Shown: piece by piece, positions 2,213-46,394 of the stretch
How positions within the stretch are numbered: position 1 is the stretch's first letter
Layout: every line of letters begins with the position of its first letter
DNA from: Aphrocallistes beatrix
Lineage: Eukaryota; Porifera; Hexactinellida; Sceptrulophora; Aphrocallistidae
NCBI GenBank assembly: GCA_963281255.1
Contig: OY725488.1
Span: 6,793,524-6,857,523 of the forward strand
Direction of reading: 5' to 3'
DNA: 64,000 nucleotides
Notes under the pieces: generated by a model
Database searches by the model: none
The model's input: only the letters and a program-made list of their open reading frames with translations
What the model was told of the DNA's origin: nothing
Position numbers and translations under genes: made by a program

Positions 2213-4524
2213 TTATTTTCCATTAGGAGAGCGGCGATTGGGAGTTAAGTAGACCGGTGACACTTTATGCGTCTTCTTGTGGGAGCGGAGCCCTGCAGAC
2301 TGAGTGAAGGATCTGTGACAGATACCGCACTTGAACGGTTTTTCACCAGTATGCAATCGGAGATGCGATCGTAGGGTAGACATCTGGCAGAAAGATCTCT
2401 GGCAAAACGAGCACGTATAAGGCTTTTCCCCAGTGTGAATTCTCGCGTGTGCCCGAAGACTGCCCGTGGATATAAAAGTCTTGGTGCAGCGGACGCATTT
2501 CCAAACTTTTTGCTTCGGACCGTCCTCACTTGGCAAAAAGAGACCGTGTAAGAGGTCCCGTGATCTCTCATGGTGTTGGCTGTGAGGATACGAGAGTCCT
2601 TTCTCGAGGCTTGGGAATGCTCCGCTGCCTTCGGCTCCAGGGGTCGGAGTGGCACATTCTGAATTTACTAAAAAAAAAAAAACTCGTGTCAGTCCAGTCC
2701 ACTAAGCGATCGCATGTCTGATTAGCTCTTGTTCCCACAGAATCATCACTTTAAAGAAGGTCTACACTAATTCTCACACACACACTCACTCTCACACTGT
2801 CACGAACTCACACACTCACTCACTCTCACACTGTCACGAACTCACACACTCACTCCACTGATTCGCACTCACTCAACATAGCTCTCAGTCAATTTTCACT
2901 CCCACAACAGCATATTTAAATAATCACCTTGTATGTTTATAATTTGTAATTAATGTCTATATGAAGGTCTTATAACAGCATTTAAAAACTTATAAACTTA
3001 AATGGTTATTTAAAACCCTTAATTGCGGTAGATTTTTGCTAACTCATTTCCGGTTAAGTCATTTTGGGCGGGGAAACCTTAGAAGTGGTCTTTGCTATAA
3101 ATAGAAATGACCCCAGGTAATTTAAAGGTTAATATCGTATATCCTCGAAAAGTATCCAGGAATTATTAATTTTTAGCCCCGTTTAACCTGATGAAAAATT
3201 AAGACCTTTGGGTTTTTTTGAGGGTGAACTCTTTTGGTTCAGAATATGGCTTTTACGACCTTTAAAATCATGATTTAAATCAAACAAACATTATAAATCA
3301 TCCGAGGCACCTTAATTAAGAGTTGAGAAAATAATAATTATATTTTTTATTTATAAAAATCATTGATTTAATCAACAACCCTTTTCTGCTGTAAAAAGTG
3401 GCGATGACTGTCACATTTTTGGACAATTTGTCAGTATATTATATTAAGTGTTTTCCACTACGGGTTCGGTTCGGCACACTCAGATTCTCTTGTGGCCTGT
3501 GCCCACCTAGCCCCACCCTCGCGCAGCCACTGGCCGGACCCTCACTACGGCTCTGATAATTGGTATTTGGTTGCTATATATAAAATTCTCAGCATCCTAT
3601 ATTGATAGATCTCAATTAAAAACTAGAGTGCTGGTAGTTTCCAGGTAGCAGCATAATTATTTCCATGGTAGCCATCTTTCGAGATACCTTATGGCATGGG
3701 CAATAACGAAGTAATTTTAGAGCAAGTAACCTGCAAGTGATAACCATACAACTGCTGTTTTTTTTAGTTAGTTATTAATTACTTTCGCTCAGTGGTGTAG
3801 CCAAGGTGGTGCGTGGTGATGCAGCGTACCACCTGACTGTGGGGGTTTTATATTGAGACATAGCCTCCAGCGGTGCGCACCATCACCAAGCAAACACTGG
3901 CTACGCATCTGTTTCCACTATAAAACATTAATCTAACATGATACGTACCAAGTGCCAGTGCTTCTACTGAAGGGATTCCACATTTCAAGTCGTAGAAATC
4001 TCCGTACCAGATGAGCAGTTCCTCGTTTGAAAGTATATCTCGAATAGCGATGAAAAATAGTTGAGATTTTTCTTGCACTATTATGAGATTTTGTTCTTTC
4101 TTATTTCGAGCGTACCGCACGAACTGCATCCAGTTCTCCATTCCGGTGGAACTCACCAGGAATTTAGATATTCCCTCTGGTTTCTCATATTCCCCGACTT
4201 CATATATCTACACAAATATACATATTTAATTAGAATAAATAATTATACCTTAAACTACTCTTTACTGATTTCAAAATGATATTTAACTTACCTCGATACG
4301 TTCCCCATCTATTCCTTTATAGTCCTCCCCGATGCTGTAGAGTTGGCCGCTATATGGTCCAATTTTTGCACCTTTAGTTATAATGGTCTTACAAAATAGA
4401 CCGATTGCGTTGAGCTGTACACGTGATTTTTTGCACTCAATCACATCATCCTGTTTTAAGTTTTTCAGCTCTTTAGCGACTAGGAGTTGAAATTCTTGTA
4501 CGCTCTTATCCGGTGGTATTACCT
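2213..4524 (-). CDS. PRDM-family PR/SET zinc-finger protein (5' end missing)
   Basis: Three exons fit in phase: 4524-4292 (acceptor tattag, donor GAG|gtaagt), 4207-3949 (acceptor tttgtgtag, donor CTTG|gtacgt) and 2667-2213 (T-rich acceptor, stop). The first two encode a PR/SET domain with G-P-Y-S-G, E-N-W-M-Q-F-V-R, A-R-x-x-x-E-Q-N-L and E-L-L-I-W-Y-G-D-F-Y. The last exon gives a roughly 50-residue linker and three tandem C2H2 fingers joined by TGEKPY and TGEKPF linkers. The domain order is that of PRDM histone methyltransferase or transcription factors. The NWM...EQNL...WYGD spelling recalls PRDM9 and PRDM14 most, but the finger count fits neither well, so no symbol is given. The SET tyrosine in WYG is kept. 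The N-terminal exon(s) lie above 4524 and were not identified; an open stretch with a C-x-x-C at 4553-4762 is a weak candidate. Confidence 0.85.
2758..2872. repeat. minisatellite in PRDM-like intron
   Basis: A run of ACTC/ACAC-rich units holds two copies of a longer unit containing 'cacactgtcacgaactcac'. It sits just upstream, in gene sense, of the zinc-finger exon acceptor. Confidence 0.7.
3035..3118. repeat. dispersed repeat, partner at 12116-12180
   Basis: The segment with 'aactcatttc', 'ggcggggaaac' and 'gaaatgaccccagg' recurs as a diverged inverted copy at 12116-12180. The element type is unknown. It lies in the long intron of the PRDM-like gene. Confidence 0.5.
3790..3911. mobile_element. 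hAT-like MITE
   Basis: The ends are an inverted pair: CAGTGGTGTAGCCAAGG at the left and ACTGGCTACGCATCTG at the right. The length is about 120 bp, with no coding capacity. CAGTG termini are typical of hAT elements. It lies within the intron between the PR/SET and zinc-finger exons. Confidence 0.55.
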
Positions 4525-4870
4525 CTAATATGTAAATGAGGATAAATACTATCTAAATATAGGCGCCATTTTTTACAATAAAATAAACCTTGGAGGGATC
4601 AACCACAGTATATTTTTCAATCTTGTCTAATCCGATAATTAGTAATGTATATTTAAAATCATACATATAGTTAACACATACCCCTAGCTTCAAACCTGGA
4701 GAGGGGGCGGCCCCCAGAAACCCACACTTGGTGCATATATCCGAACTCATGTGCAAGCCCAAATGTCAGAATTAATGTCGCTGAGTAATATAGATTAATC
4801 GAGGCTTAGAAAGATAACAAAAAATAATCTAAATGTTGGATAAACCAGTTTGTTGATAATTAATTGTTTA

Positions 4871-5353
4871 CAAGCGCGCTTCGCTTGCTTGCGCTGCGCG
4901 GCTGGCGGACACTTTGTCCGCCGGAGGCTCCCTTCGGTCGCCTGGGGTTCACATTGCTTAGTTATAAGGGAGATAACATCTCTAAATACGTCTGTCCTAC
5001 TGTTATAATCAATATCGCACAAAAAAATCACCAAATTTAACAATTTTTGAAATTTTGATGATTAATGATGACGTCATAACAAAGTGATGAGTCATCATTT
5101 TTTGATGATAGTCGCATCATATGTTAGTATACAGATTCTATTAAAATTTCAGTCTTCTATCTCCTATAATGGCTGAGTTATGCTCGAATAACTGTATTGC
5201 TTAACTTTTAAAAATGTGACAATTACGTCATAACTCCATGATGAGTCGACATTTTCGTCTGAGCTCAGAACTTACTGGAGCCATAGCCAAAAAACTCACA
5301 TGCCAAAAATCAGCTTTCTGCACCTGGCAGTTTCTTCAATCAATTCGTTACAG
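4871..5353. repeat. GC-capped dispersed repeat, copy A
   Basis: This is the first of six copies of a family that starts with a GC-rich cap (CAAGCGCGCTTCGC, then the small hairpin GGCGGACACTTTGTCCGCC) and ends at CAATTCGTTACAG. The body is AT-rich and contains TGATGACGTCATA, a GATGAGTCATC motif and a second, here decayed, CRE. There is no coding capacity; short ORFs crossing it are spurious. Other copies: 9907-10426, 18224-18717, 19887-20318, 20353-20847 and 22169-22662. See the Helentron-like element at 18726 for a possible relative. Confidence 0.75.
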
Positions 5354-20867: not shown

Positions 20868-22142
20868 CAGGGTGTTTCATAATTGATGCCCTATCCAGAT
20901 TTAACACACTTTATAGAATATCCACTAGTAGTCTTTTACTAGTTAATCGATTCAGCTTGCATCTCAATAGTATGACTCCAATGAACATTTGTTAAGCATT
21001 TAGCTCCATTATAATCGTTATTTTGATCTGCTTACTCCGAAATTAGGTATTCCACTAATATTTACTAAACTAATGGTCAAAGAACAGACTGTTCAAACTC
21101 GTAATCGGGCAATTGGCATGTTACAAGGTGGGCTGACGCAAAAAAAGGTTGCTAAACAGATTGGTGTCAATATCCGAACAGTTCGTCGTTGGTGGCTTAG
21201 CTTTCTTGAAGGTCACTCACTCGAAAACAAAAGGGGCCTGGACGAAAAACATCCGTCCCAATGCCAGCAAAATTGGTCATCACAAAGTCTACCAAGAAAA
21301 GGCACCAATCAACCAGATCCATCTCTCGGAAGTTGAAGTCTAAGGGGTATTCTATCTCATACAGCACCGTTTACGGGAAAACCGATTGAAATTTTGTAAG
21401 GCACGACAAAATTGGACAACAGAAGAATGGAAAAGAGTTATTTTCTCAGATGAATGTCCCTTTGAACTGATCCATGCACCCAATCGACAGAATGATCGAA
21501 TTTGGGCACCTGACAAGTCTGATGTTCCACCCATAGAACTGGTAAAACACCCTCCTAAAATTCAGGTATGGGGGATGATCTCTTACCAGGCTGTCTCCGA
21601 TTTGCACATGATAGATCCTGGACAAACAGTAACTGCAGATTACTATGTGAACGAAGTTCTGACGAAGACTCTTAGTGCCACGTATAAACGAAAACGAAAA
21701 ACCGGATCAACTATCCAGAGAAAGATGGTACACAACATGTCCAATTCAATTTTCCAACAAGATGGTGCACCGGCCCATCACTCGAAAAAGTCTCAAGAGT
21801 GGTTAAAAAATAATATACCTTCGTTCTGGGAGAAAGGTATTTGGCCAGGTAACTCCCCAGATCTCAATCCAATAGAAAATGTATGGGCAATAATGAAAAG
21901 TGATATGGATACGATGGCTTTTCCACACAACCTGAAAAAGCTTGAAAATAACATTAAACTGGCCTGGTCGAGACTTTCGCCTGAAATGTTAGAAAATTTA
22001 TATAATGGGATGCCGAATAGAATAAATAAGTGCATCAAACTGCATGGTGGTTATATTGCAAAGTGATTTCTTAGATTTTTAGCTGTTAGTGTTGCGTTAA
22101 TTCTTTGTGTGTTATAGAGGGCATCATTTATGAAACACCCTG
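20868..22142 (+). mobile_element. Tc1/mariner transposon, DD37E, whole ends but broken gene
   Basis: The inverted ends CAGGGTGTTTCATAATTGAT and ATCATTTATGAAACACCCTG sit inside a TA microsatellite. The transposase gene covers 21073-22066. The helix-turn-helix part opens at 21073 (T-Q-K-K-V-A-K-Q-I-G-V). A middle segment starting at 21261 is in another frame, and the catalytic part (21386-22066) is in a third, so there are at least two frameshifts. Catalytic motifs are I-F-S-D-E, F-Q-Q-D-G-A-P-A-H-H and S-P-D-L-N-P-I-E-N, with 37 residues between the second aspartate and the glutamate, a DD37E spacing. The ends look young, so the copy could still be mobilised in trans. Confidence 0.9.
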
Positions 22143-28578: not shown

Positions 28579-29123
28579 CAGGCTCAATGAGAGGGGGTGG
28601 TGCCAGCAGGGCCATTTGGCCCGGGCCTCGAGTTCCAAGGGGGCCTCCTCACCCTCCATAGTCCCACAAAAATAGACAGAGTTCATGATAATAATTAATT
28701 ATGTATTCTATTTTACAATATTTGGATTATGTAGTGTTCTTGTTAACTCAATTATTGATGCATTCGCAGAGAAAAATGCTAGAAAAGGGGCATGCCTAAT
28801 TTCCGGGACGGGACGGAACCGTCCCGGAAATTAGGCATCTTAACCCGTCCCGTCCCGGAAATTAGGTACCTTTTCTGTCCCGTCCCGGAAATTAGGTACC
28901 TTTTCTGTCCCGTCCCGGAGATTAGGCATCTTGACTCGTCCCGTCCCGGAAATTAGGCATGCCCTAGAAAAGTATTTATCAATTAAAGCTCGTTTGTATT
29001 CACACAATTATACATCTATTATTATCGTATAATATTTATCATCTCATGTTTTCATAGATTGAAATTGTAGGCTACAATTCTAGCAAAGTGGCCCTGCCCT
29101 CTCTGATTCTCTCAGAGGCCCTG
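28579..29123. mobile_element. hAT-like element with perfect 8-bp TSD
   Basis: The ends CAGGCTCAATGAGAG and CTCTCAGAGGCCCTG are loosely inverted. ACTATGGT is duplicated perfectly at 28571-28578 and 29124-29131. It contains the palindromic element at 28788-28964, which is therefore younger. Confidence 0.75.
28788..28964. mobile_element. palindromic GGGACGGGAC element, compact copy
   Basis: The ends GGGCATGCCTAATTTCCGGG and their exact inverse enclose about five units of CCCGTCCCGGAAATTAGG alternating with short spacers. TAGAAAAG is duplicated perfectly at 28780-28787 and 28965-28972, so the whole array moved as one unit with 8-bp duplication. A relative lies at 25466-25857. Confidence 0.8.
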
Positions 29124-29598
29124 ACTATGGTACCTAGTGACTAAGGTGACCCGCATTGGGCTCACTCAAACTTGGGACCTATGCTACAAACAAAGTACGA
29201 TTTATCCAAGAGACTGTATATTTTAATCAACGGCTATGTAGGATTTTGATCAACGATGTATCGGTGGGATTTTGATCAAAGATTTATCGATGTAGAGATT
29301 AAGGCCTAATTTGAAATAGGAATAAGACCTAAAATCTCGAAAGTAGGATAAGACATAAAATGCCACACAGTACCTACTCCAGAAATAAAAATGCCACTTT
29401 CACATTCAATTGGACACTATTTCAAACCTAAAATGCCCCCCCCCCTTCACTAGGTTCTTACACATATCACTCTCCAAAATGCTCACTTTCGCTCTCCCTC
29501 AAATTTTAGGTTTATTCCTACTTAGCAGGTTTTAGGTCTTATTCCGATTCCCCCTATGTGCGGCAGGATATAAACATTGAAAAAGAATAGTCACATTA

Positions 29599-29900
29599 CA
29601 GTAGGACGTCAGTTATCCGAACGGGTTGGGACCGCGGGGGTTCGGATAACTGAAGTTGTTATGTGATTATATAGAAAAGTTGGTCAGTAGTACTAAGTAG
29701 TCATAATGATGAATATGGATAAAATACTCATTAGCTTATGTAGGTATCATAGTATATAAAATGATGGCAGTGTAATAATTTCAATTATCAACTCAGGATG
29801 CATCATTTATACATTTATTATATTTTAGTTTGGTCAACCAAGGGGTTCGGATAACTGAAGTGTTCGGATAACTGAAGTTCGGATAACTGACGTTCTACTG
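29599..29900. mobile_element. TA-flanked MITE, 302 bp
   Basis: It starts CAGTAGGACGTCAGTTATCC and ends with the near-inverse GGATAACTGACGTTCTACTG, flanked by TA. The motif GTTCGGATAACTGAAG recurs several times near both ends. Pogo/Tigger style, no ORF. Confidence 0.8.
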
Positions 29901-30085
29901 TATATAGTATTGCAAGTGACAAATGTATATTTGTTGATTTAAATCGTTGATCAAAATCCCACATGAACGTTGATCAAAATATATAGTCCCTTTATCCAAG
30001 TCGTATACGTATGTTACACCAAGGATTTTAACCATTTTGTTGAATGAAACAAATTTTTTAAAATACATTTGTCCACGTTAAGAGT

Positions 30086-30769
30086 ATGGCAGCTAAGCAA
30101 GATGTGCTAGGTGTTCAGAAATATCCAAGGACACCTCACTTCTCGTTCTCTCCAGGAGTTAGTGGTGACGACATCGTTCTACCCTCTACTTCGAAACAAC
30201 CTTTCCTTTCTCAAGAATCAATTCTCACTGAAAAACTAGATGGAGGAAATTGCTCGATATTCCGTGGCAAGGTTTATGCGAGAACTGTGAGCGAAGAAGC
30301 GACACATCCATCTTTCGGGCCGATCAAACAAATAGCTGCGCAAATATCCTGTCTAATACCAGATAATATCCAAATATTCTGTGAGAACATGTTCGCAGTA
30401 CATTCAATACAATATGATCAGTTAGATTCATATTTATACATTTTTGCAGTCCTAGAACATGGGAGAGAATGGTTGTCATGGGATGAAGTTGTCGAATGGT
30501 CTGATACTCTAAGTATCCCAACAGTGCCGTTAGTGCAGAGAGGAATATTTGGAACTTTATCAATAGTTGAAGAAATAATTATCAAGAAAATGAAACAACC
30601 TTCTCTCTTGAGTACTGGCACTCCTGAAGGATTCGTGCTCAGAAATGGGAATAGATTTGGATATGATGAACTTAATAAGAATGCGGTAAAATACGTGAGA
30701 GCTGGACACATACAAACTGATGAAAAATGGAAAAAAACTTGGAAGCAAGCAAAGTTATTTCCTAAATGA
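30086..30769 (+). CDS. bacterial-type RNA ligase (pfam RNA_ligase family)
   Basis: A 227-residue intact, intronless ORF carries all nucleotidyltransferase motifs of ATP-dependent RNA ligases in order. Motif I is E-K-L-D-G-G-N with the nucleotidylated lysine at about 50. Then come motif Ia Y-A-R-T at about 64, motif III F-C-E-N-M-F-A at about 98, motif IIIa Y-I-F-A-V at about 118, motif IV P-E-G-F-V at about 180 and motif V V-K-Y-V-R at about 201. The N-terminal K-Y-P-R-T-P-H-F-x-F-S-P-G and the W-L-S-W-D-E segment match a family I know from bacteria, full length. It is unlike the animal RLIG1 ligase. The start ATGG at 30086 is the first in frame. The predicted role is sealing of RNA ends through lysyl-AMP, either repair or tRNA ligation; the substrate cannot be told. 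No host gene overlaps it, and only transposon relics lie to the left. I infer horizontal transfer or an under-noticed animal branch of the family. Confidence 0.9.
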   Translation: MAAKQDVLGVQKYPRTPHFSFSPGVSGDDIVLPSTSKQPFLSQESILTEKLDGGNCSIFRGKVYARTVSEEATHPSFGPIKQIAAQISCLIPDNIQIFCENMFAVHSIQYDQLDSYLYIFAVLEHGREWLSWDEVVEWSDTLSIPTVPLVQRGIFGTLSIVEEIIIKKMKQPSLLSTGTPEGFVLRNGNRFGYDELNKNAVKYVRAGHIQTDEKWKKTWKQAKLFPK

Positions 30770-33181
30770 TATCTCCGATTTGTGAATTGTATATGTTTGT
30801 TAGTTCTAAGTTAGTTCAAAGATCACGTAGTTGTGTACTTTTGGTTATATCAACATGTTACAGTGCTGCCAATTTAAACTAAGCCATAAAAATACGGGGT
30901 CAATATTATGCATGTAATTGACCCCATGGCATTGGCGGGTTTTAATAATTAGAAAACATGTATTGTGTAACTCGATTACAGACTATTCAATGGAGCAGAG
31001 GACGACTGAATGCAAGTTTAGGACTGAGTCTACTGTTCCAATAACATGTTTTAATTGAGCTAATTTCACTGAATTGAATTTTAAGATTGCAGTTGTAGAT
31101 TCAGCTGATATCAAAATATCAATACAATACTAATGTTAATAATTTAATGTGGCAAAAAGTAAACAAGAAAACATGGTAGTATATAAATGAAAAAAAGTTG
31201 CGCATATAGCAGATGCAGTTCATCACTTTAGCAGAGAGAATTGGCAGAAATCGGCAACCAGCATATAAAGCATTTCACCAGTGTGGTTCTCTTGTGGCCT
31301 GAAGAATCTACATTAACAGAATCAATTTAATTGTATTTTAAAATGAGTGGACACTTTTCTGTGCAACAAGGCAATTCTGAGTATTACCTGATATTTGGTG
31401 TCTTAATACTAGCCTTCGGTTCTGTAGTATTCCAACCTTGAAAGAGAAAGCAATAAACTAATAGAATATAACATAAATATTCGAAACATGTCGTAATTGG
31501 GCCTAATATATGCATTAGTGTGATATTCTAGGAGGGAAACTTACCTTTCTAACAATTACTGCTGGCCATAAAATGGGACCCCCTTCCCCCAATCCTTGTT
31601 AATGTAATTTTAAGAATATATGCACAAGTATAATTATAATCATAACTAGGGTAAACTTTGGGTACATAACTCGAAATAAATCCTTATGGCACAAACATGA
31701 AATATGTAAGCCTAGCAGCGCGAACAAGTGAAAACATACTCGTACCTATAATAATGATAGCTATGATTAGCAATGACAATTATTAGATTTATGATAAAAA
31801 CAGATTAAGTTCTAATCAAACAATACGGCCTAATTTTATTATAATTGTATCAATTTACTGCGGTCATGTTAGACGGAGTGAATAAAAAATATTTTTAAAA
31901 GGAAGATACGTACTTGACTCATTTAATTTATCATTAATGAGCTAATAATGTAGTAATATTTAATTTAAAATATAAATTTAATTTGTGAAACTTACCGTGA
32001 TAATGCTTCGAAAAAAAAATTGCCCACAAGAACAAGACACAAACTAATATCGAAATATTAGTTTGTGTCTTAAAACGAAGGCTAGTATTAAGACATGGCG
32101 TAAATCCAGTGGTTCTTATTTATACATCACTCATAAAACTTTAGCACATCTATGTCGAATTTTCAGCTAATTGGAAGTCTATTTGAGGTCACAAATACTA
32201 TGATATGTTGATTTTTGATTGTCAAATTAAAATCTTTTCGTATCGTGACTGGGTACACTATACGTCCATACGGTGCCTGGATAACCCAGCTTCAGGAGAA
32301 GCCGGCCTAGGATAAGTTAGCGTTCCAGAGAACTACTACTCACGCCGTAATTGAAACAGTTCCCTGGAATGCGAGGAGTTGCTTTGTTTGGTATTTGCGT
32401 AGTAATAAGTATTAATTTAATACATACTTATGAAAGGACCAAGTATCTAGGTGTTAGCTTAAAATACAATCGAGTTGAATTGGGCTGAGATCTCCCATTG
32501 GCTGAGTTCGTATTGTACCGACACAGTGGAGTAATTGTTTTGTTGCCTCACCCTACTAATAGAGTAATTCATCATTGAATGAGCTATTTTATTTTAGGTG
32601 AATATGTTATTCATCAATGAAAAATTTTGCTGATTCAGACATTTGTCACTATCTCAATTTTTGTGAAAATTATCACCATTCCATTCAATTTAATCAATTA
32701 TAAATTTTTTTTATTTTTTGGCGAATAACTTTAAAGTGGGTACGAGGACGTTCATAGTTTTATTACTAAAACTACGTAATTAACCGACAAACAAGTAACC
32801 ATGAATCAATCATCAATCATGCCCCATTTTATACCAATATATCTAGATATCTCTATTAATCCGAGATAACCGTTTGAAACTAGATGAAAAAGCAATACCC
32901 CGGGGTTAAAAATGAACAATTATGATAATATGATATCTTTATTAAGTTTATCTGTGCGCAAAACACATCCATAATTATCACTAATATCAAGAATATTCAG
33001 TACGAAGCACGTAATCATAATACTATAATCCATAGCACAAGACAGTGGAAAAACCTTCAAAAACACAGACAGATCAATAAAACCTATCAAACCCAAATTT
33101 ATAAAAGCCAAACAAGTCAAACACTAACAAGGAATAAAAAACGTATTTACAATGTGGGGGGCGGTCTGTGTAGGCTTGTGA
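30770..33181. other. gene-free stretch, 3' flank of SGK3-like gene
   Basis: No gene was found. A hairpin GGGGTCAAT/ATTGACCCC lies at about 30896-30927. 'tgtcttaatactagccttcg' near 31400 is inverted at about 32076-32096, possibly the ends of a 700-bp element. A perfect palindrome (arms AGACACAAACTAATAT, 4-nt loop) lies at 32036-32071. On the minus strand an AATAAA near 32938-32943 is a plausible polyadenylation signal for the SGK3-like gene. Confidence 0.5.
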
Positions 33182-39521: not shown

Positions 39522-39794
39522 AAAATTAGGCGCCCGAACGATCTCTGACACATAATGTCTTCAAGCCGCAATGGGTAATTGCTTGCTTCTGCTAAATTGC
39601 TGTGGATAATTCGAGATATGAGAGGAGAAATTAGTAACGATTGAAATTCATAGTACGATACATTGGTAGCAAATCGCGTTATCTCATTGGCTGTCAAATA
39701 AAAAATTAACGAATATAACTAACACTAATTAGTTGAAATTTCTATAAGAGTATAAACAATTCCTACAATTTCATTTTAATGAACAAATACATTA

Positions 39795-42700
39795 ATGCGA
39801 TCTATGCTGTATGAGGTAAGTGATAAGCCCTTCAAGGAAAAAATGCCAAATTTTGCTCAACGTATTGCTACTACCTATCTGGTTGCACTACTCTCTCCTA
39901 ATGGCATATTCGTGCATATATGGGATAACCTAATATTAACAAGTATTATTATCAACGCTCTCATTGTCGGATTCCAAGCTTCCTTCAATTCTTCAGTCCT
40001 CTGGTTATGGATCAGTAGCTACTTGCTCGATGGGTTATTCATTATAGACATTATCTTACAGTTTATCATGGGATACAATGATAAAGGAATAAACGTAACG
40101 AAGATATCAAAAACAGCGAAACATTATGCCAAAACTATCCTCGTTATTGATATGTTATCCATAATCCCCTTCGAACTGTTGGGAGCGATTCCGATAATAG
40201 GTCCAACCTACTATGTTATAGCACTGGCCAGACTAAATCGAGTGATTAGAATCTACAGGATATTTTGGCTAGTATTGAAAAATCAGTCTTCACTTGGAAC
40301 AAATTTCAACTTCATGCAAACGCTGAAATACCTGAGCTACATATTTATTCTGTTACAAATCGCATCTTGTGCTTGGTATTCAGTCTCCTGTAAGAACCTA
40401 ACTGACCTCACTGACAGAACGGTCTGCACTAGAGACAGTTGGTACTACAATTCTCCTTTGTCAATCGTTAGCACTCAGACTAATACAACTGATGTAGAAA
40501 ATTTCATCGTCTCGATATACTGGGGGATGGCAACGATAACTTCAACTGGATTCGGAGATATTGTGGCAGTTAGGAGAGGCGAGAAAGTGGTTGCAATCTT
40601 TTTTATGCTAGCTGGAACACTTCTATTTGGATTCATAGTTGGCAGCATCACGTCAAACATTACCAACTCAGATACAAACTGGTTCCTATACGCCCAAAGG
40701 ATAAGAGCAATAATGAGTTTTATGCGAGACACAGAAGTTAGTCAGTCTCTACGCGACAAGGTCTGGCTCTACTACAAATACTTATTCGAGTCAAAACACG
40801 GTGTGGAGGATAAATCAGTCAGGAAAGGATTGCCTAAGCATATGGAGGGAGATATTTCAATGAAAATCGCTCAAGAATTTTTGGAAAATTTGAGTTTATT
40901 CAAAGATGCTCACTACAGTTTTCATAGGGCATTAGCCTTAGAAGTAGAATCTTTCTTTTATCTCCCAGGTCAAAAAATTGTTACAAAGGGGAAGAACTGT
41001 GACTTCATTTATTTCATCAGGCGAGGAAAGGCGGCTATAATGTCTCCCGATGACGAGTCCGCCCAGCAAGATGTCCTGAATGAGGGAGACATAATAGGAG
41101 AAATGTACATGGTCTATAATTATGAAAGAATATCGGACATTGTTGCAATCACAAATTGTGAGACATTGCGAATATCAAGAGAGAAACTGAATAAAGTGCT
41201 TGTTTTCTTCCCCAATGTGAGACAGAAGATGAAAGAAATAGCGAGATCATCCGTCAAAGATGCAATGAAGACATGCTCAAAGGAAATTATAACTGATAAT
41301 CTTCACAGTTTGTCCAGAGATACAGAGCTGAGTCGTAGTAACGCAAGCACCCGAACAAATTTAATTCAAGCTCGTAATTCAAGTGCCACTAATTATACTG
41401 CATCTAAGGGATCAATCTGGAGTCACAAAAGTGATTCATTAACGACACAACGTAAGAATACGCTCATCAACGCTCTCTCTCAGAGAGTTAAACGTTTTGA
41501 AAAAGTATTTATGTTTGGAATGATGGTTGTTCTGCCTTTGTGGAGCATCTTGGTCCCATACGTAGCTATATTCTCATCGGTCGAATGGCATGTGACTCAA
41601 AACGTATCTGCAGGTTTCTGGGCTCTCTATGCTTTACTATACATCTTGGATTTGTTCTTGATCTTGGACACACTGCTAATAGGAAATCTCTCTCTGGACT
41701 TCAAATCGCCTTATTACATTACCTCAGTAATAATCGAAGTAAGCGCAAATCTACCGATAGAAATTGTCGGCGCCATTATGGGAGGGAGCATCAAAAGTTT
41801 TAAAGTACTTTGGTTGTTACGACTGAATCGGCTGCTAAAATGGATTAAATTATCTGAATACTTCAGTATCTTGGAGAAGAAACTTGGATCGCATATAGAA
41901 CTTCTACGATGTTTCAAGTACTTTCTATATCTTCTCTGCGCCACTCATGTCGTTGCTTGTGTTTGGTTTTCGATCGCAACTTTTGAAGGTTGTATAAACC
42001 CGAACAGTTGGGCGTCATTTCACCAGCTCAACTTCTCCCATTCTATCCTGCAAAACTACGTCACTTCTTTCTACTTCTCAGCTGTGACACTCACCTCCAC
42101 AGGATTCGGTGATATCCATGCATATACTACGTTGGAGCAGATTTTCGTTATCGGTCTCAGTTTAATCGGATTCATGCTCTACGGCCACTGTCTTGCTACG
42201 CTGGCATCCACGCTTGGGAATAATGCGCTACCCAAAGTTCTGTTTCAGGAAAAGATCTCAGCTGTTAACAACTTCCTATCTAATCACAAGGTTTCCGCAA
42301 GTCTCAGAAAACGGATTGAAAGATATTTTGAACTGTTCTGGATCAAATGGCAGGGACAATCAGGACAAGAGCATGTGATGTTTGACCTCCCGCTCCCTTT
42401 CCAAGAGAACATGGCAAGTGAAATACAAGAGGATATTATCCGGAATTTACCGATATTTAAGCAAACAGATCCAAACTACATCAAGCGTCTCTGCCTGAAT
42501 ACGATAACATATGCTTATAGCCCCGGGGAAATAATAATCTACGCTGGAGATATGGGGAAAGAGATGTATTTTATTAGAAGAGGGAGCGTGGAGGTGTTGG
42601 ATGAGACAATGTCGTTCGCTCTAAGTACGATCGGAGCAGGCGGCTACTTCGGTGAAGAAGGTTTATTGTTCGGGACACCAAGAGCTGTGTCCATTAGAGC

Positions 42701-45700
42701 TAGCACTTACTGTGAAGTCATTATGCTGCACAAGAACGCAGTAGATGATACGACAGAGGCTTACCCACTCATCAGGAAACATTTTGAAGAGCTGGCTGAA
42801 AAGAAGCATCATTCTCAAAAAGCTCTCAAGGATTCCGCTATCCAACTTCCCACTTTATCAGACAAGATGTATCCTAATTTATATAATACAACTTATTCGC
42901 TCTTAAGAACGCTTCAACCACTCCTTAGCTTCGCTCTCCCTTACAATCTCACAAGTATTGTCATAAATTCTATTAACGACGACAAAGTATTGAATAAGAT
43001 AACGCATCCTATGGCTACGCCATTTGGACTCTCGGGAACTATCAGGCCATTCAGCATAAGCGATAATCTTAGAGGGGGAGTTACCCCTCGAGATAGTGCT
43101 AGTTCAATCCAAGATTCAATTAAGAAGTATTTTAACGAGAAATGTATAGGAAACATTGAGCCAGAAAAACTTCAGGAAGAAAGTCAAGGCTGGACGAATA
43201 ATAGAATATTCAAAAGGCCCCAAAATCTAGAAGGTGACAACATTGAATCACAACAAACAAGTAGCATTAAATCATTGGAGAAATTGAAAAAAATCATAGC
43301 AACTTTTATGCTACGATTTGCTTTCTTGCCGACATCTACCTTTTATAGTTGGTGGGAGCTTTTATTCACTCTTTTGTCTTTCACAAGTTTCTTTCTTGTG
43401 TGTTTGCAGGCTGGATTCTGCCCAGATGCAATTCCTTTAATCTTTTTCAATTACCTGATCGACATCGCATTCATCGTTGACATGATACTTAAGATGCACA
43501 CAGCTTACTTTGATAGAAAACAACATCTCATCACACACCCGGTTCACTGTGCAGTGAACTACTTCAAAGGAAATTTCATAATAGATTCGTTGGCTAACTT
43601 TCCAACTGAGTTGGCACTTCCTATACTATCTATCTGGGGACTGAGCAGTTACTTAAAAATACTCGCACTGGTCAGGATGAATCGTTTGATACGCATTTAC
43701 AAAATTCCCCTAGCATTCGGACACATTGCAAAGAAGATAACCAGGACAGGCTATGTATTCTTACAACTCGAATTCATTATCATTCTATTTCTACTAATGC
43801 ACCTCACAGGCACAATCTGGTTCCTGTTAGCTCAATCCCATGAATATTTCCTCACAGATATGGTTACTATGTTCACAGAAGAGAGTTGGGCTGCGAAGCA
43901 AAATCTTTTCCACAATTCTTCAACCGTACGGCAGTACATCATCTCTCTCTACTGGGCCGCGACTGCTACATCTACTGTCGGCTACGGAGATATCTATGCC
44001 TCCACTGTAATTGAGAGGCTCTACACATCGTTTGTTGTTATCATTGGGATACTGTACTATGGATTCGTTATGGCAAATGTGGCTGCAAATATCGCGAACG
44101 CAGATGCTCAGATGGCAAGTTTCAAGGAAAAAATGATGAACGTATTTTTCTTTTTAAAAGATCAGAATATTGATACCGGACTGCAAAAGAGGATTATGAA
44201 CTATTTTAAGTTCCTTTGGGGAGAAACAAAAGGTATAAATGCAAACGAACTTTTCAAAGAGATGCCTCTTGCACTACAGGGCGATATAGCACTCAGTCTA
44301 TATAAAAGTTTGATTGACAAAGTACCTCTATTCAACAATACTGAAATCGGATTCACCAAACTCTTATCACTCTCTATACACCCTGAGTACTTCCCGAAAG
44401 GTGAATATGTGGTGAAGAAAGGAGATTTGGGCAGTTCTATGTATTTTATCTACAGAGGTACTGTCGAGGTAGTGAGTGAAGATGGTTCAACAGTATTCGC
44501 AAGCATGGGTGAAGGAAAGTTTTTCGGAGAAATTAGTGTCTTGAGTCAACTTCCTAGAACTGCGTCAATTCGCGCTGGTACGAATTGTGCATTGTTTGTT
44601 TTACGAAAAGTTGATCTCGATTTAGCGCTAGAGGCGTACCCGCACATCAATGACCAGATCAAAGAGGAAGCCAATCGAAGGCTCAACCTAGTAAAGCAGA
44701 GAAGCAAAGCCGCAAAAGAAGCGAAGGAAAAGGGGGCTGATGCAAAAACTGCGGCGGAAGCAGCAGCTAGAGCTGCTAAAGATAAAGATGAACAATCTGG
44801 AAAATCTGAGCTTCCGCCCGCACCTACTGAAGATGATGTTCCTATTGTCCATTGTCACAAAGTCAAAGATGAGAAGGATTGGGCTTGGTTTCAGTTATTC
44901 GTGAGGGAATCCATTACTAAGACATGGGATGGTGCAATCACAAAATATGAGAAATGGAATCCAATCAAGTACACAATCCATCCTAACTCTAAATTAGCAA
45001 TGGTGATTAAACTAGTTGAGTTCTTCCTCCTCTACGTCAGTACTTTCACAATCACATTCCAAGGCTGCTTTCAAGATACTGCGATCCACTTTCTTGTCAT
45101 CAACTATGCATTCGAAATTTGTTTCGTCCTCCTCATGATAATTAAGTTTTACATGGCATACATTGACTCAGATGATGGTTCGCTTAAGAATGGCCTGAAA
45201 GACATCGCTGAACATTATCTTTTTCAGCCGCTCTCTTTCGGTCTTGAATTAATTTCTCTATTGCCAATTGAAATATTTTGCTTAGCACTGAGTGATTCAA
45301 AGCTGCGAATCTCATACCTCCTCTACTTCAGAATAATTCACGCACTACGTGGTATCAGGATACCTTTCATTCTTTCAGAACAAGAAAAAACTCTGAGTTC
45401 ATGGACTACATACATCAGGATATTCAAATTCTTTGTCCTCATAACTCTCTGCCTACACATTGTCTGTTGCGTATGGTTCGTGATTGGCTGTCAAGTCAGT
45501 ATTTGCAAACCAAATAGTTGGGCAGTATCTAAATTCGTTTCCATCGCCAACTATAAAAACGGAACATACCAATTGGACAATGACATATCCTCTCTCTTGG
45601 ACCAATACCTGACAAGCATGTACTGGACTGTTGCAACATTGACTTCAACCGGTTATGGGGACATTGTGCCCACTCAAGAGATGGAAATGGTGCTAGCAAT

Positions 45701-46394
45701 CGTGCTCATTCCAATTGGTAGGTTTGTAATGGGATTTATCTTGGGAAACATTACTTCAACACTTGCTAGCTTGAATTCACAGAAAGTGCAATATGAGTCT
45801 AAGTTTAGGATCATGAAGAGCTATATGGATGACTTGAACATGCCGACTCACATCCAAGGGCGTGTAAAAGAATTTTACGAGTATTGCTGGAGCAAAAATA
45901 AAGGAACCAATAGAAACGAATTGTTGGAAGAGTTTCCATTTTGCCTCAGAAATGAACTTCTCGGGATAGTCAACAATCAAGCTTTAAACGGCATTCCAAT
46001 CCTCAGTCAATTTGATGCGAATATACAGCGACACATCGCAGTGTTACTTGAACCACTTCTCCTCACACCGGGTGAATTCGTAGCCAAGGTAGGAGATGCC
46101 GGACAGGAGATTTACTTCATCAAGAAAGGTTCAATCGAGTGTTTGGATTACAACCGACATCTGGTGAAGATGCTAGGGCCAGGCGACTACTTTGGTTTCG
46201 AAGAAACCTTCGGTCGTAAACCGTACATTAACAATCATAGAACAATAACGCATTGTGAATTGATTATTTTCTCTGAAGAGAGCATCGAACTTCTGAAAGA
46301 AGCTTATGACACTGAGAGCAATAAAGTCATCTCGAATGTGGTTGATGCAACAATCGCGGATTTAGAAACAGAAGAAATTGAAACTGATATCTAA
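39795..46394 (+). CDS. CNGK-type four-repeat cyclic-nucleotide-gated K+ channel, single exon
   Basis: A 2199-residue uninterrupted ORF contains four homologous units, each with an S1-S6 core, a pore and a C-terminal cyclic-nucleotide-binding domain (CNBD), as in sea urchin sperm CNGK. Pore signatures are T-S-T-G-F-G-D (about 249-255), T-S-T-G-F-G-D (767-773), S-T-V-G-Y-G-D (1393-1399) and T-S-T-G-Y-G-D (1950-1956), all potassium-selective. S4 segments carry spaced arginines, for example R-L-N-R-V-I-R-I-Y-R in repeat 1 and R-M-N-R-L-I-R-I-Y-K in repeat 3. Only CNBD3 is canonical (F-F-G-E-I, L-P-R-T-A-S-I-R-A near 1587). CNBD2 has P-R-A-V; CNBD1 and CNBD4 lack the P-R-T-A motif. An alanine/lysine/glutamate-rich linker follows CNBD3. 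The gene has no intron, unlike its neighbours. AATAAA occurs at 46577; no poly-A tract follows. The predicted role is cGMP-gated K+ flux, perhaps in sperm or sensory cilia as in other animals. Confidence 0.93.
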   Translation: MRSMLYEVSDKPFKEKMPNFAQRIATTYLVALLSPNGIFVHIWDNLILTSIIINALIVGFQASFNSSVLWLWISSYLLDGLFIIDIILQFIMGYNDKGINVTKISKTAKHYAKTILVIDMLSIIPFELLGAIPIIGPTYYVIALARLNRVIRIYRIFWLVLKNQSSLGTNFNFMQTLKYLSYIFILLQIASCAWYSVSCKNLTDLTDRTVCTRDSWYYNSPLSIVSTQTNTTDVENFIVSIYWGMATITSTGFGDIVAVRRGEKVVAIFFMLAGTLLFGFIVGSITSNITNSDTNWFLYAQRIRAIMSFMRDTEVSQSLRDKVWLYYKYLFESKHGVEDKSVRKGLPKHMEGDISMKIAQEFLENLSLFKDAHYSFHRALALEVESFFYLPGQKIVTKGKNCDFIYFIRRGKAAIMSPDDESAQQDVLNEGDIIGEMYMVYNYERISDIVAITNCETLRISREKLNKVLVFFPNVRQKMKEIARSSVKDAMKTCSKEIITDNLHSLSRDTELSRSNASTRTNLIQARNSSATNYTASKGSIWSHKSDSLTTQRKNTLINALSQRVKRFEKVFMFGMMVVLPLWSILVPYVAIFSSVEWHVTQNVSAGFWALYALLYILDLFLILDTLLIGNLSLDFKSPYYITSVIIEVSANLPIEIVGAIMGGSIKSFKVLWLLRLNRLLKWIKLSEYFSILEKKLGSHIELLRCFKYFLYLLCATHVVACVWFSIATFEGCINPNSWASFHQLNFSHSILQNYVTSFYFSAVTLTSTGFGDIHAYTTLEQIFVIGLSLIGFMLYGHCLATLASTLGNNALPKVLFQEKISAVNNFLSNHKVSASLRKRIERYFELFWIKWQGQSGQEHVMFDLPLPFQENMASEIQEDIIRNLPIFKQTDPNYIKRLCLNTITYAYSPGEIIIYAGDMGKEMYFIRRGSVEVLDETMSFALSTIGAGGYFGEEGLLFGTPRAVSIRASTYCEVIMLHKNAVDDTTEAYPLIRKHFEELAEKKHHSQKALKDSAIQLPTLSDKMYPNLYNTTYSLLRTLQPLLSFALPYNLTSIVINSINDDKVLNKITHPMATPFGLSGTIRPFSISDNLRGGVTPRDSASSIQDSIKKYFNEKCIGNIEPEKLQEESQGWTNNRIFKRPQNLEGDNIESQQTSSIKSLEKLKKIIATFMLRFAFLPTSTFYSWWELLFTLLSFTSFFLVCLQAGFCPDAIPLIFFNYLIDIAFIVDMILKMHTAYFDRKQHLITHPVHCAVNYFKGNFIIDSLANFPTELALPILSIWGLSSYLKILALVRMNRLIRIYKIPLAFGHIAKKITRTGYVFLQLEFIIILFLLMHLTGTIWFLLAQSHEYFLTDMVTMFTEESWAAKQNLFHNSSTVRQYIISLYWAATATSTVGYGDIYASTVIERLYTSFVVIIGILYYGFVMANVAANIANADAQMASFKEKMMNVFFFLKDQNIDTGLQKRIMNYFKFLWGETKGINANELFKEMPLALQGDIALSLYKSLIDKVPLFNNTEIGFTKLLSLSIHPEYFPKGEYVVKKGDLGSSMYFIYRGTVEVVSEDGSTVFASMGEGKFFGEISVLSQLPRTASIRAGTNCALFVLRKVDLDLALEAYPHINDQIKEEANRRLNLVKQRSKAAKEAKEKGADAKTAAEAAARAAKDKDEQSGKSELPPAPTEDDVPIVHCHKVKDEKDWAWFQLFVRESITKTWDGAITKYEKWNPIKYTIHPNSKLAMVIKLVEFFLLYVSTFTITFQGCFQDTAIHFLVINYAFEICFVLLMIIKFYMAYIDSDDGSLKNGLKDIAEHYLFQPLSFGLELISLLPIEIFCLALSDSKLRISYLLYFRIIHALRGIRIPFILSEQEKTLSSWTTYIRIFKFFVLITLCLHIVCCVWFVIGCQVSICKPNSWAVSKFVSIANYKNGTYQLDNDISSLLDQYLTSMYWTVATLTSTGYGDIVPTQEMEMVLAIVLIPIGRFVMGFILGNITSTLASLNSQKVQYESKFRIMKSYMDDLNMPTHIQGRVKEFYEYCWSKNKGTNRNELLEEFPFCLRNELLGIVNNQALNGIPILSQFDANIQRHIAVLLEPLLLTPGEFVAKVGDAGQEIYFIKKGSIECLDYNRHLVKMLGPGDYFGFEETFGRKPYINNHRTITHCELIIFSEESIELLKEAYDTESNKVISNVVDATIADLETEEIETDI

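What the first reader, a model, noticed from the sequence alone, without database searches (positions are those of the whole stretch)
30086..30769. Bacterial-type RNA ligase gene in an animal contig
The ORF keeps every ligase motif (K-L-D-G, C-E-N-M, E-G-F-V, K-Y-V-R) and the N-terminal K-Y-P-R-T-P-H signature of a family I know from bacteria, yet lies intronless between animal genes and transposon relics. The reading frame is intact, so it appears to be under selection. That points to an acquired RNA repair or splicing function, or an unrecognised animal branch of the family.
Basis: partly seen in the sequence, partly recalled or inferred. Interest (0 to 1): 0.78.

Follow-up and report, generated by a model that had tools for sequence, protein, structure and literature searches.

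The report
Bacterial-type RNA ligase in a sponge
What looks like a sponge chromosome carries one intact copy of a small RNA-joining enzyme whose relatives found here are all in bacteria and their viruses, probably an old gene transfer that may help the animal mend broken RNA.

Summary
Window 30086-30769 (+) is an intact 227-aa ORF matching Pfam RNA_ligase PF09414 (6e-23) and phage family phrog_34045 (9e-47), single copy in its genome. It belongs with Deinococcus DRB0100: it keeps 18 of 18 columns fully conserved in 78 relatives, and its model (pLDDT 92) matches the catalytic domain of RNA ligases. Relatives found are bacterial (576 confirmed loci, 80 kept) or in virus contigs (339, 80 kept); best identity 44%. 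In 58 of 80 bacterial loci an HD-phosphatase/kinase gene lies nearby, pointing to RNA end-healing and sealing. The genome looks like a glass sponge's. The ORF sits on a 12.5-Mb contig, 183 bases from a transposon repeated on 14 contigs and 111 bases from another repeat, with mostly host-like composition: not ordinary contamination. Lateral origin is the best reading, but the donor is unresolved, no animal relatives could be searched, selection and expression were not tested, and lack of introns means little in glass sponges. DRB0100 itself did not ligate in vitro. New member of a known kind.

The parts
30086..30769 (+). RNA ligase ORF, 227 aa, DRB0100/phrog_34045-like, PF09414
30119..30139 (+). 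N-terminal K-Y-P-R-T-P-H motif (residues 12-18)
   Evidence: K12 and H18 fully conserved in 78 relatives
30233..30244 (+). motif I K-L-D-G (K50 is the predicted AMP-accepting lysine)
   Evidence: equivalent K40 of DRB0100 shown to take AMP (PMC1997131, passages)
30380..30391 (+). C-E-N-M; E100 fully conserved (motif III, name recalled)
30626..30637 (+). E-G-F-V (motif IV, name recalled)
30689..30700 (+). K-Y-V-R (motif V, name recalled)
29597..29902 (.). transposon-like repeat with 26-nt inverted ends and TA borders (pogo/Tc1-like is my reading), 183 bases before the ATG
   Evidence: arms 96% complementary; 39 other places on 14 contigs at 90-98% identity
29208..29992 (.). 53-nt inverted repeat arms (29208-29260 / 29940-29992) enclosing the repeat above: probably an older element with the younger one nested in it (inference)
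   Evidence: 85% complementary
30881..30946 (.). short repeat 111 bases after the stop codon, 14 other places at 79-88% identity
33182..35306 (-). SGK3-like PX plus protein kinase gene (exon pieces), nearest downstream animal gene recognised
21344..22066 (+). Tc1-type DDE_3 transposase piece, upstream side

Best explanation
The ORF is a nuclear gene of the animal (probably a glass sponge) for a minimal covalent-nucleotidyltransferase RNA ligase of the DRB0100/phrog_34045 family, gained long ago by lateral transfer from bacteria or their large phages and kept as a single copy. Shown: intact frame, catalytic motifs, catalytic-domain-only fold (predicted), family affinity, embedding between host repeats. 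Inferred: K50 takes AMP from ATP, the AMP is passed to a 5'-phosphate RNA end, and a 3'-OH end is then joined to it. In many bacteria the ends would be prepared by the nearby HD-phosphatase/kinase; in the animal its own PNKP-like enzymes would do this. The likely job is repair of RNA broken by stress or by ribotoxins, not splicing.
For: Family and motifs. Model pLDDT 92.1, pTM 0.90; best PDB matches are Naegleria RNA ligase, an archaeal RNA ligase, an Aquifex ligase and T4 Rnl2 (E 2e-7 to 1.2e-6). Bacterial, plasmid and phage relatives. HD (PF01966) + AAA_33 (PF13671) neighbour in 58 of 80 bacterial loci, 54 of the 58 downstream on the same strand, 15 within one long ORF. Host embedding: 12,531,196-base contig, host repeats on both sides, CpG o/e 0.69 against 0.79 for the window and codon log-likelihood within the range of nine chunks of a neighbouring host gene, Kozak-like AGTATGG. 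The genome has two PNK3P hits and three full RtcB hits. Parallel: bdelloid rotifers carry RNA ligases judged to be laterally acquired and induced by radiation (PMC10809525, passages) or by fungal attack (PMC11258130, passages).
Against: No close donor: best identity 44%, end branch 1.23-1.56, support for the exact place weak, AU tests reject none of the tested placements. No animal but this one was searched, so a vertical eukaryotic family is not excluded. DRB0100 showed adenylation but no DNA or RNA joining. No HD-kinase was found in the genome (without a positive control). Third-position GC of the ORF is 0.31, below the 0.43-0.61 of four neighbouring host genes. Transcription, splicing and selection were not tested; 8 of 42 near-invariant columns are changed.
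Confidence: 0.6

Rival explanations
1. An old eukaryotic (or animal) branch of the family inherited vertically and lost in most lineages; the bacterial look only reflects where relatives were searched.
For: Lone long branch with no sampled bacterial sister; 44% best identity; the same genome holds another PF09414 gene on C6, with introns by eye and a K-F-P-R-T-K-H start, and an Rnl2-like piece on C17, so several such ligases exist in this animal. [quoted passage not shown]
Against: Every relative found is in a bacterial genome, plasmid, phage or virus contig, but no eukaryote collection was available, so this is weak; the C6 gene is only distantly related (branch 3.97).
Confidence: 0.25
2. A recent, functionless insertion: bacterial or phage DNA caught in the genome and not yet decayed.
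For: Single copy; no expression evidence; some near-invariant positions changed; third-position GC differs from neighbouring genes.
Against: 44% best identity with 18 of 18 fully conserved columns kept, and host-like overall GC, CpG and codon likelihood: enough change has gathered for an unselected frame to have broken, unless the donor itself is unsampled.
Confidence: 0.08
3. Contamination or a chimeric join in the assembly.
For: Sponges carry microbes; no reads could be examined.
Against: Host repeats 183 and 111 bases away on the two sides, present on many contigs; mostly host-like composition; none of 11 other window ORFs put to Pfam looked bacterial.
Confidence: 0.04
4. It is an adenylyltransferase rather than a polynucleotide ligase (for example it modifies RNA 5' ends or a protein). 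This may hold whatever the gene's origin.
For: DRB0100 takes AMP on K40 but joined nothing in vitro (PMC1997131, passages); the window protein has no domain beyond the catalytic one in its model.
Against: Bacterial neighbourhood with a predicted end-healing enzyme and fold matches to RNA ligases.
Confidence: 0.15

Closest known systems
Deinococcus radiodurans DRB0100 (DR_RS15960, WP_010884034.1), operon DRB0098-DRB0100
   Same: PF09414 catalytic domain only, about 210-230 aa, K-Y-P...H start and the motifs
   Different: 36% identity; bacterial operon with HD-kinase and PARG; the sponge gene has no such neighbour
Saprospiraceae/Chitinophagales ligases (L024 and kin)
   Same: Closest by identity (44%) and share the C-terminal W-x-x-x-W tail
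   Different: Of a list of 25 rows of this group (24 bacterial loci plus Proteus record L017), 23 have the HD-kinase nearby; clustering with the sponge gene is neither supported nor rejected
Large-phage ligases (XacN1 ORF260, phrog_34045/phrog_24030; IMG/VR L002 and the K-L-D-G-G-N subgroup)
   Same: Same domain; L002 and the sponge gene share E-K-L-D-G-G-N-C-S and V-Y-A-R-T
   Different: 31-43% identity; no HD-kinase near them (0 of 81 viral loci); some carry an N-terminal extension
Naegleria gruberi RNA ligase (Rnl5 type), T4 Rnl2, archaeal RNA ligase (Rnl3 type)
   Same: Best fold matches to the catalytic domain
   Different: They have a further domain (recalled) that this protein lacks
RNA ligases of bdelloid rotifers judged laterally acquired
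   Same: Animal genes with bacterial/phage best matches; PF09414 is among the domains examined (PMC11258130, passages)
   Different: Their sequences were not compared here

Membership tests
Covalent nucleotidyltransferase RNA ligases (PF09414) | catalytic domain with motif I lysine and motifs III, IV, V | tested here: met
DRB0100 / phrog_34045 ligases | short (~210-230 aa) catalytic domain starting K-Y-P-x-T-x-H with the family's fully conserved columns | tested here: met
   phrog_34045 9.2e-47; 18 of 18 columns fully conserved in 78 relatives
DRB0100 / phrog_34045 ligases | HD-phosphatase/kinase partner gene (common in bacteria, not universal, so not defining) | tested here: not met
   none seen beside the gene; none in the genome by protein search, no positive control; in relatives 58 of 80 bacterial, 0 of 81 viral loci
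Rnl5 (DraRnl, NgrRnl) | N-terminal OB-type domain before the catalytic domain (recalled) | tested here: not met
   conserved family columns begin at residue 12; the 227-aa model has no such domain
Rnl2 (T4 type, TIGR02307) | curated Rnl2 profile and C-terminal domain | tested here: not met
   no TIGR02307 match up to E 10; the protein ends 22 aa after motif V. Some authors file such phage ligases under Rnl2 in a wide sense (PMC7824862, passages)
RLIG1/C12orf29 | membership of the RLIG1 protein family | tested here: inconclusive
   only PF09414 matched in Pfam up to E 10; no RLIG1 sequence was compared directly
RNA repair ligase (function) | joins 5'-phosphate to 3'-OH RNA ends | not testable with these tools
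   needs enzyme assay
Horizontally acquired animal gene | nested in a non-animal clade with animals sampled, and present in the host's chromosome | tested here: inconclusive
   chromosome embedding met; nesting unresolved and animals unsampled

The most novel reading that the evidence does not exclude
Glass sponges own a domesticated branch of the bacterial/phage DRB0100 RNA-repair ligase that has cut loose from its bacterial HD-kinase partner and been rewired to the animal's own PNKP enzymes, giving the animal a second 5'-phosphate/3'-OH sealing route beside RtcB, used against stress or ribotoxin damage as proposed for bdelloid rotifers.
Probability: 0.2. Interest if true: 0.6.

Novelty: new member of a known kind. 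Interest (0 to 1): 0.42.

Why it matters
If expressed, it adds a second animal group, far from rotifers, in which microbial RNA ligases were kept, and it makes the idea testable that animals recruit RNA-repair enzymes from microbial conflict systems. It also offers a fresh enzyme for a family whose studied member, DRB0100, showed no ligation in the published assays.

Tried and rejected
A single-sequence scan of bacterial genomes found no confirmed relative; the alignment-based scan did. A phmmer search of the PDB gave only chance hits; a profile search gave 3qwu ('DNA ligase', 2.8e-5), 9qw7 (tRNA ligase, 0.004) and 5cot (Naegleria, 0.23), with many fatty-acid-binding chains that I take as chance. 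'Recent mobile-element cargo' was rejected: one copy in the genome. 'Giant-virus donor': no NCLDV capsid in 0 of 17 related virus records, but the control was also empty; phage terminase in 8 of 17, not in the record of L002. 'Donor is Bacteroidota' or 'is the L002 phage': neither shown nor rejected. The first, larger tree with the C6 paralogue as outgroup was set aside for its long branch. The ten paper searches listed no report of this gene in sponges that I recognised; I saw listings, of open-access papers only. Papers opened for passages and little used: PMC9503650, PMC9931718, PMC10282587, PMC10280926; PMC8162421 was irrelevant.

Full report
WHAT IS THERE. The window lies at 6,793,524-6,857,523 of contig C1 of a 100.5-Mb, 28-contig genome; C1 is 12,531,196 bases long. 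The ORF 30086-30769 (+) is intact, 227 aa, present once. Chance expectation for a stop-free frame of that length in the window is about 0.002. It matches PF09414 at 6.4e-23, phrog_34045 at 9.2e-47 and phrog_24030 at 1.1e-42.

THE ORGANISM. C28 is a 17,996-base contig with COX1 and an ATP-synthase subunit c gene (PF00137, 4.8e-14): a mitochondrial genome. Read with AGR as Ser its COX1 aligns nearly end to end with animal COX1 (residues 2-516 of 523), while ATA reads better as Ile (by eye). atp9 in mtDNA together with AGR=Ser is, from recall, a mark of glass sponges (Hexactinellida). A small genome also fits: A. vastus 80 Mb and O. minuta 61 Mb (PMC10282587, section 5 read). I did not identify the species; the 18S search failed.

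THE FAMILY. tblastn found 30 of 50,697 phage records and 49 of 72,556 plasmid records, among them D. radiodurans DR_RS15960 and Xanthomonas phage XacN1 ORF260. That DR_RS15960 is DRB0100 follows from its gene order (ligase, PARG, HD-kinase), as described in PMC11833690 (passages) and PMC1997131 (passages). Best identity is 44% (a Saprospiraceae MAG). In an alignment of the window protein with 78 relatives (78 of 172 extracted) it agrees with 18 of 18 columns fully conserved in the others and with 34 of 42 that are at least 90% conserved.

STRUCTURE. AlphaFold2 on that alignment gives pLDDT 92.1, pTM 0.90. Foldseek's best PDB matches are Naegleria gruberi RNA ligase (6vt4, E 2e-7, TM 0.53 by query), an archaeal RNA ligase (2vug), a putative Aquifex DNA ligase (3qwu) and T4 Rnl2 (2hvr, 1s68); 45 matches reach E 0.001. 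The protein is the catalytic domain alone; the extra domains that (from recall) mark Rnl5 and T4-type Rnl2 are missing.

GENOMIC CONTEXT IN RELATIVES. With DRB0098 as query, an HD + AAA_33 gene (Pfam of DRB0098) is detected in 58 of 80 bacterial genome loci, 54 of the 58 downstream of the ligase on the same strand and 4 upstream; in 15 of the 80, all Actinomycetota, the ligase ORF is over 500 aa and includes it. It is detected in 5 of 11 phage/plasmid-collection records and 0 of 81 viral loci (the 81 count one contig twice, L002 and L109). Some loci are cut by contig ends and the search used one query, so these are lower bounds. The microbial PARG neighbour is detected only in D. radiodurans among these 172. 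This is the layout of an end-healing and sealing unit. DRB0098 phosphorylates 5'-OH ends, DRB0100 takes AMP on K40, but no ligation was seen (PMC1997131, passages). Phages' ATP-grasp RNA ligases are thought to mend tRNAs cut by host RNases, and some Rnl2 members carry N-terminal HNH domains (PMC7824862, passages); the N-terminal extensions of rows such as L009, L015 and L016 look like these (my reading).

IS IT PART OF THE ANIMAL? Upstream, 183 bases before the ATG, a 306-base element with 26-nt inverted ends has 39 other places on 14 contigs at 90-98% identity (40 of 607 candidates scored). Downstream, 111 bases after the stop, a 66-base repeat has 14 other places at 79-88%. GC is 0.39 against 0.385 for the window, CpG o/e 0.69 against 0.79, and codon log-likelihood -1.195 against -1.15 to -1.325 for nine chunks of the neighbouring channel gene; against this, third-position GC is 0.31 where four neighbouring genes have 0.43-0.61. 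The start context AGTATGG suits a eukaryote. The gene is therefore not ordinary contamination; reads were not available.

WHERE DOES IT COME FROM? In a 73-row tree (of 174 rows; long, identical and most actinobacterial rows dropped and the rest thinned) the window, L002 and 23 Bacteroidota-type and phage rows are split from 48 others with 100/99 support, but the window's own place has 92/64 on an end branch of 1.23. AU tests for window+23 (p 0.61), window+L002 (0.62) and window+16 Bacteroidota-type rows (0.20) reject nothing. With phage rows of a K-L-D-G-G-N subgroup added, a 65-row tree leaves it on a weakly supported branch (62/90), and six more AU tests reject nothing (p 0.16 to 0.72), among them window with the subgroup and window with the other-phyla group. 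The W-x-x-x-W tail (by regular expression) is in the window, in 23 of 23 rows of the group, and in 23 of 148 other rows, 9 of which are further kin of that group; L002 lacks it. So: inside a bacterial/phage family, donor unknown, and a eukaryotic origin of the branch not excluded since no eukaryotes could be searched.

HOW IT WOULD WORK. Inferred chemistry, from the superfamily: ATP + K50 to enzyme-AMP; AMP to the 5'-phosphate of RNA; attack by a 3'-OH and release of AMP. The animal has two PNK3P-family hits in open frames of 446 and 541 aa that could heal ends, and three full RtcB hits. The bacterial HD-kinase was not found (no positive control). Rotifer parallels: two RNA ligases predicted to be laterally acquired and over-expressed after radiation in A. 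vaga (PMC10809525, passages), and RNA ligase genes among the most induced by a fungal pathogen, with ribotoxin repair proposed, though not enriched under desiccation (PMC11258130, passages).

VERDICT. A real, host-embedded, bacterial-type RNA ligase gene; lateral acquisition likely, old, donor unresolved; repair function plausible and untested.

Noticed in passing
G000:C6:4271319-4271588 and L021 about 3660-4960 (minus strand): A second PF09414 ligase in the same animal, K-F-P-R-T-K-H start, four exons with GT-AG borders by eye, beside an ESF1-like gene (name by eye); E 1.9e-31 when the exons are joined by eye.
   Followed up: partly
G000:C17:2239078-2239314 (L007:1378-1785): Rnl2-family-like piece (TIGR02307 1.6e-17, below its curated cut-off; 135-aa frame), a third RNA ligase type in the genome.
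   Followed up: no
G000:C3:46936-48249, C7:16203-17516, C7:4623714-4625027: Three full-length RtcB hits, each in one open frame of 509 aa; two lie within 50 kb of contig starts.
   Followed up: no
39783-46394 (+): Intronless 2203-aa ORF with four Ion_trans and four cNMP-binding stretches: a four-repeat cyclic-nucleotide-gated channel in one exon.
   Followed up: no
G000:C28: 17,996-base mitochondrial genome with atp9; by eye AGR behaves as Ser (sometimes aligned with Gly) and ATA as Ile, TGA as Trp.
   Followed up: partly
L056, L059, L061, L063, L066, L070, L076, L077, L078, L083, L086, L092, L094, L102, L103: Actinobacterial ligases in ORFs over 500 aa that include the HD-kinase: apparently one-chain healing-and-sealing proteins.
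   Followed up: partly
L168, L198-L206, L208-L210: A well-supported phage-type subgroup (100/100, 13 rows) with K-L-D-G-G-N in motif I and G-E-D in place of G-E-N.
   Followed up: partly
28840-29007 (-): Minisatellite-like run coding V-P-N-F-R-D-G-T-E repeats.
   Followed up: no
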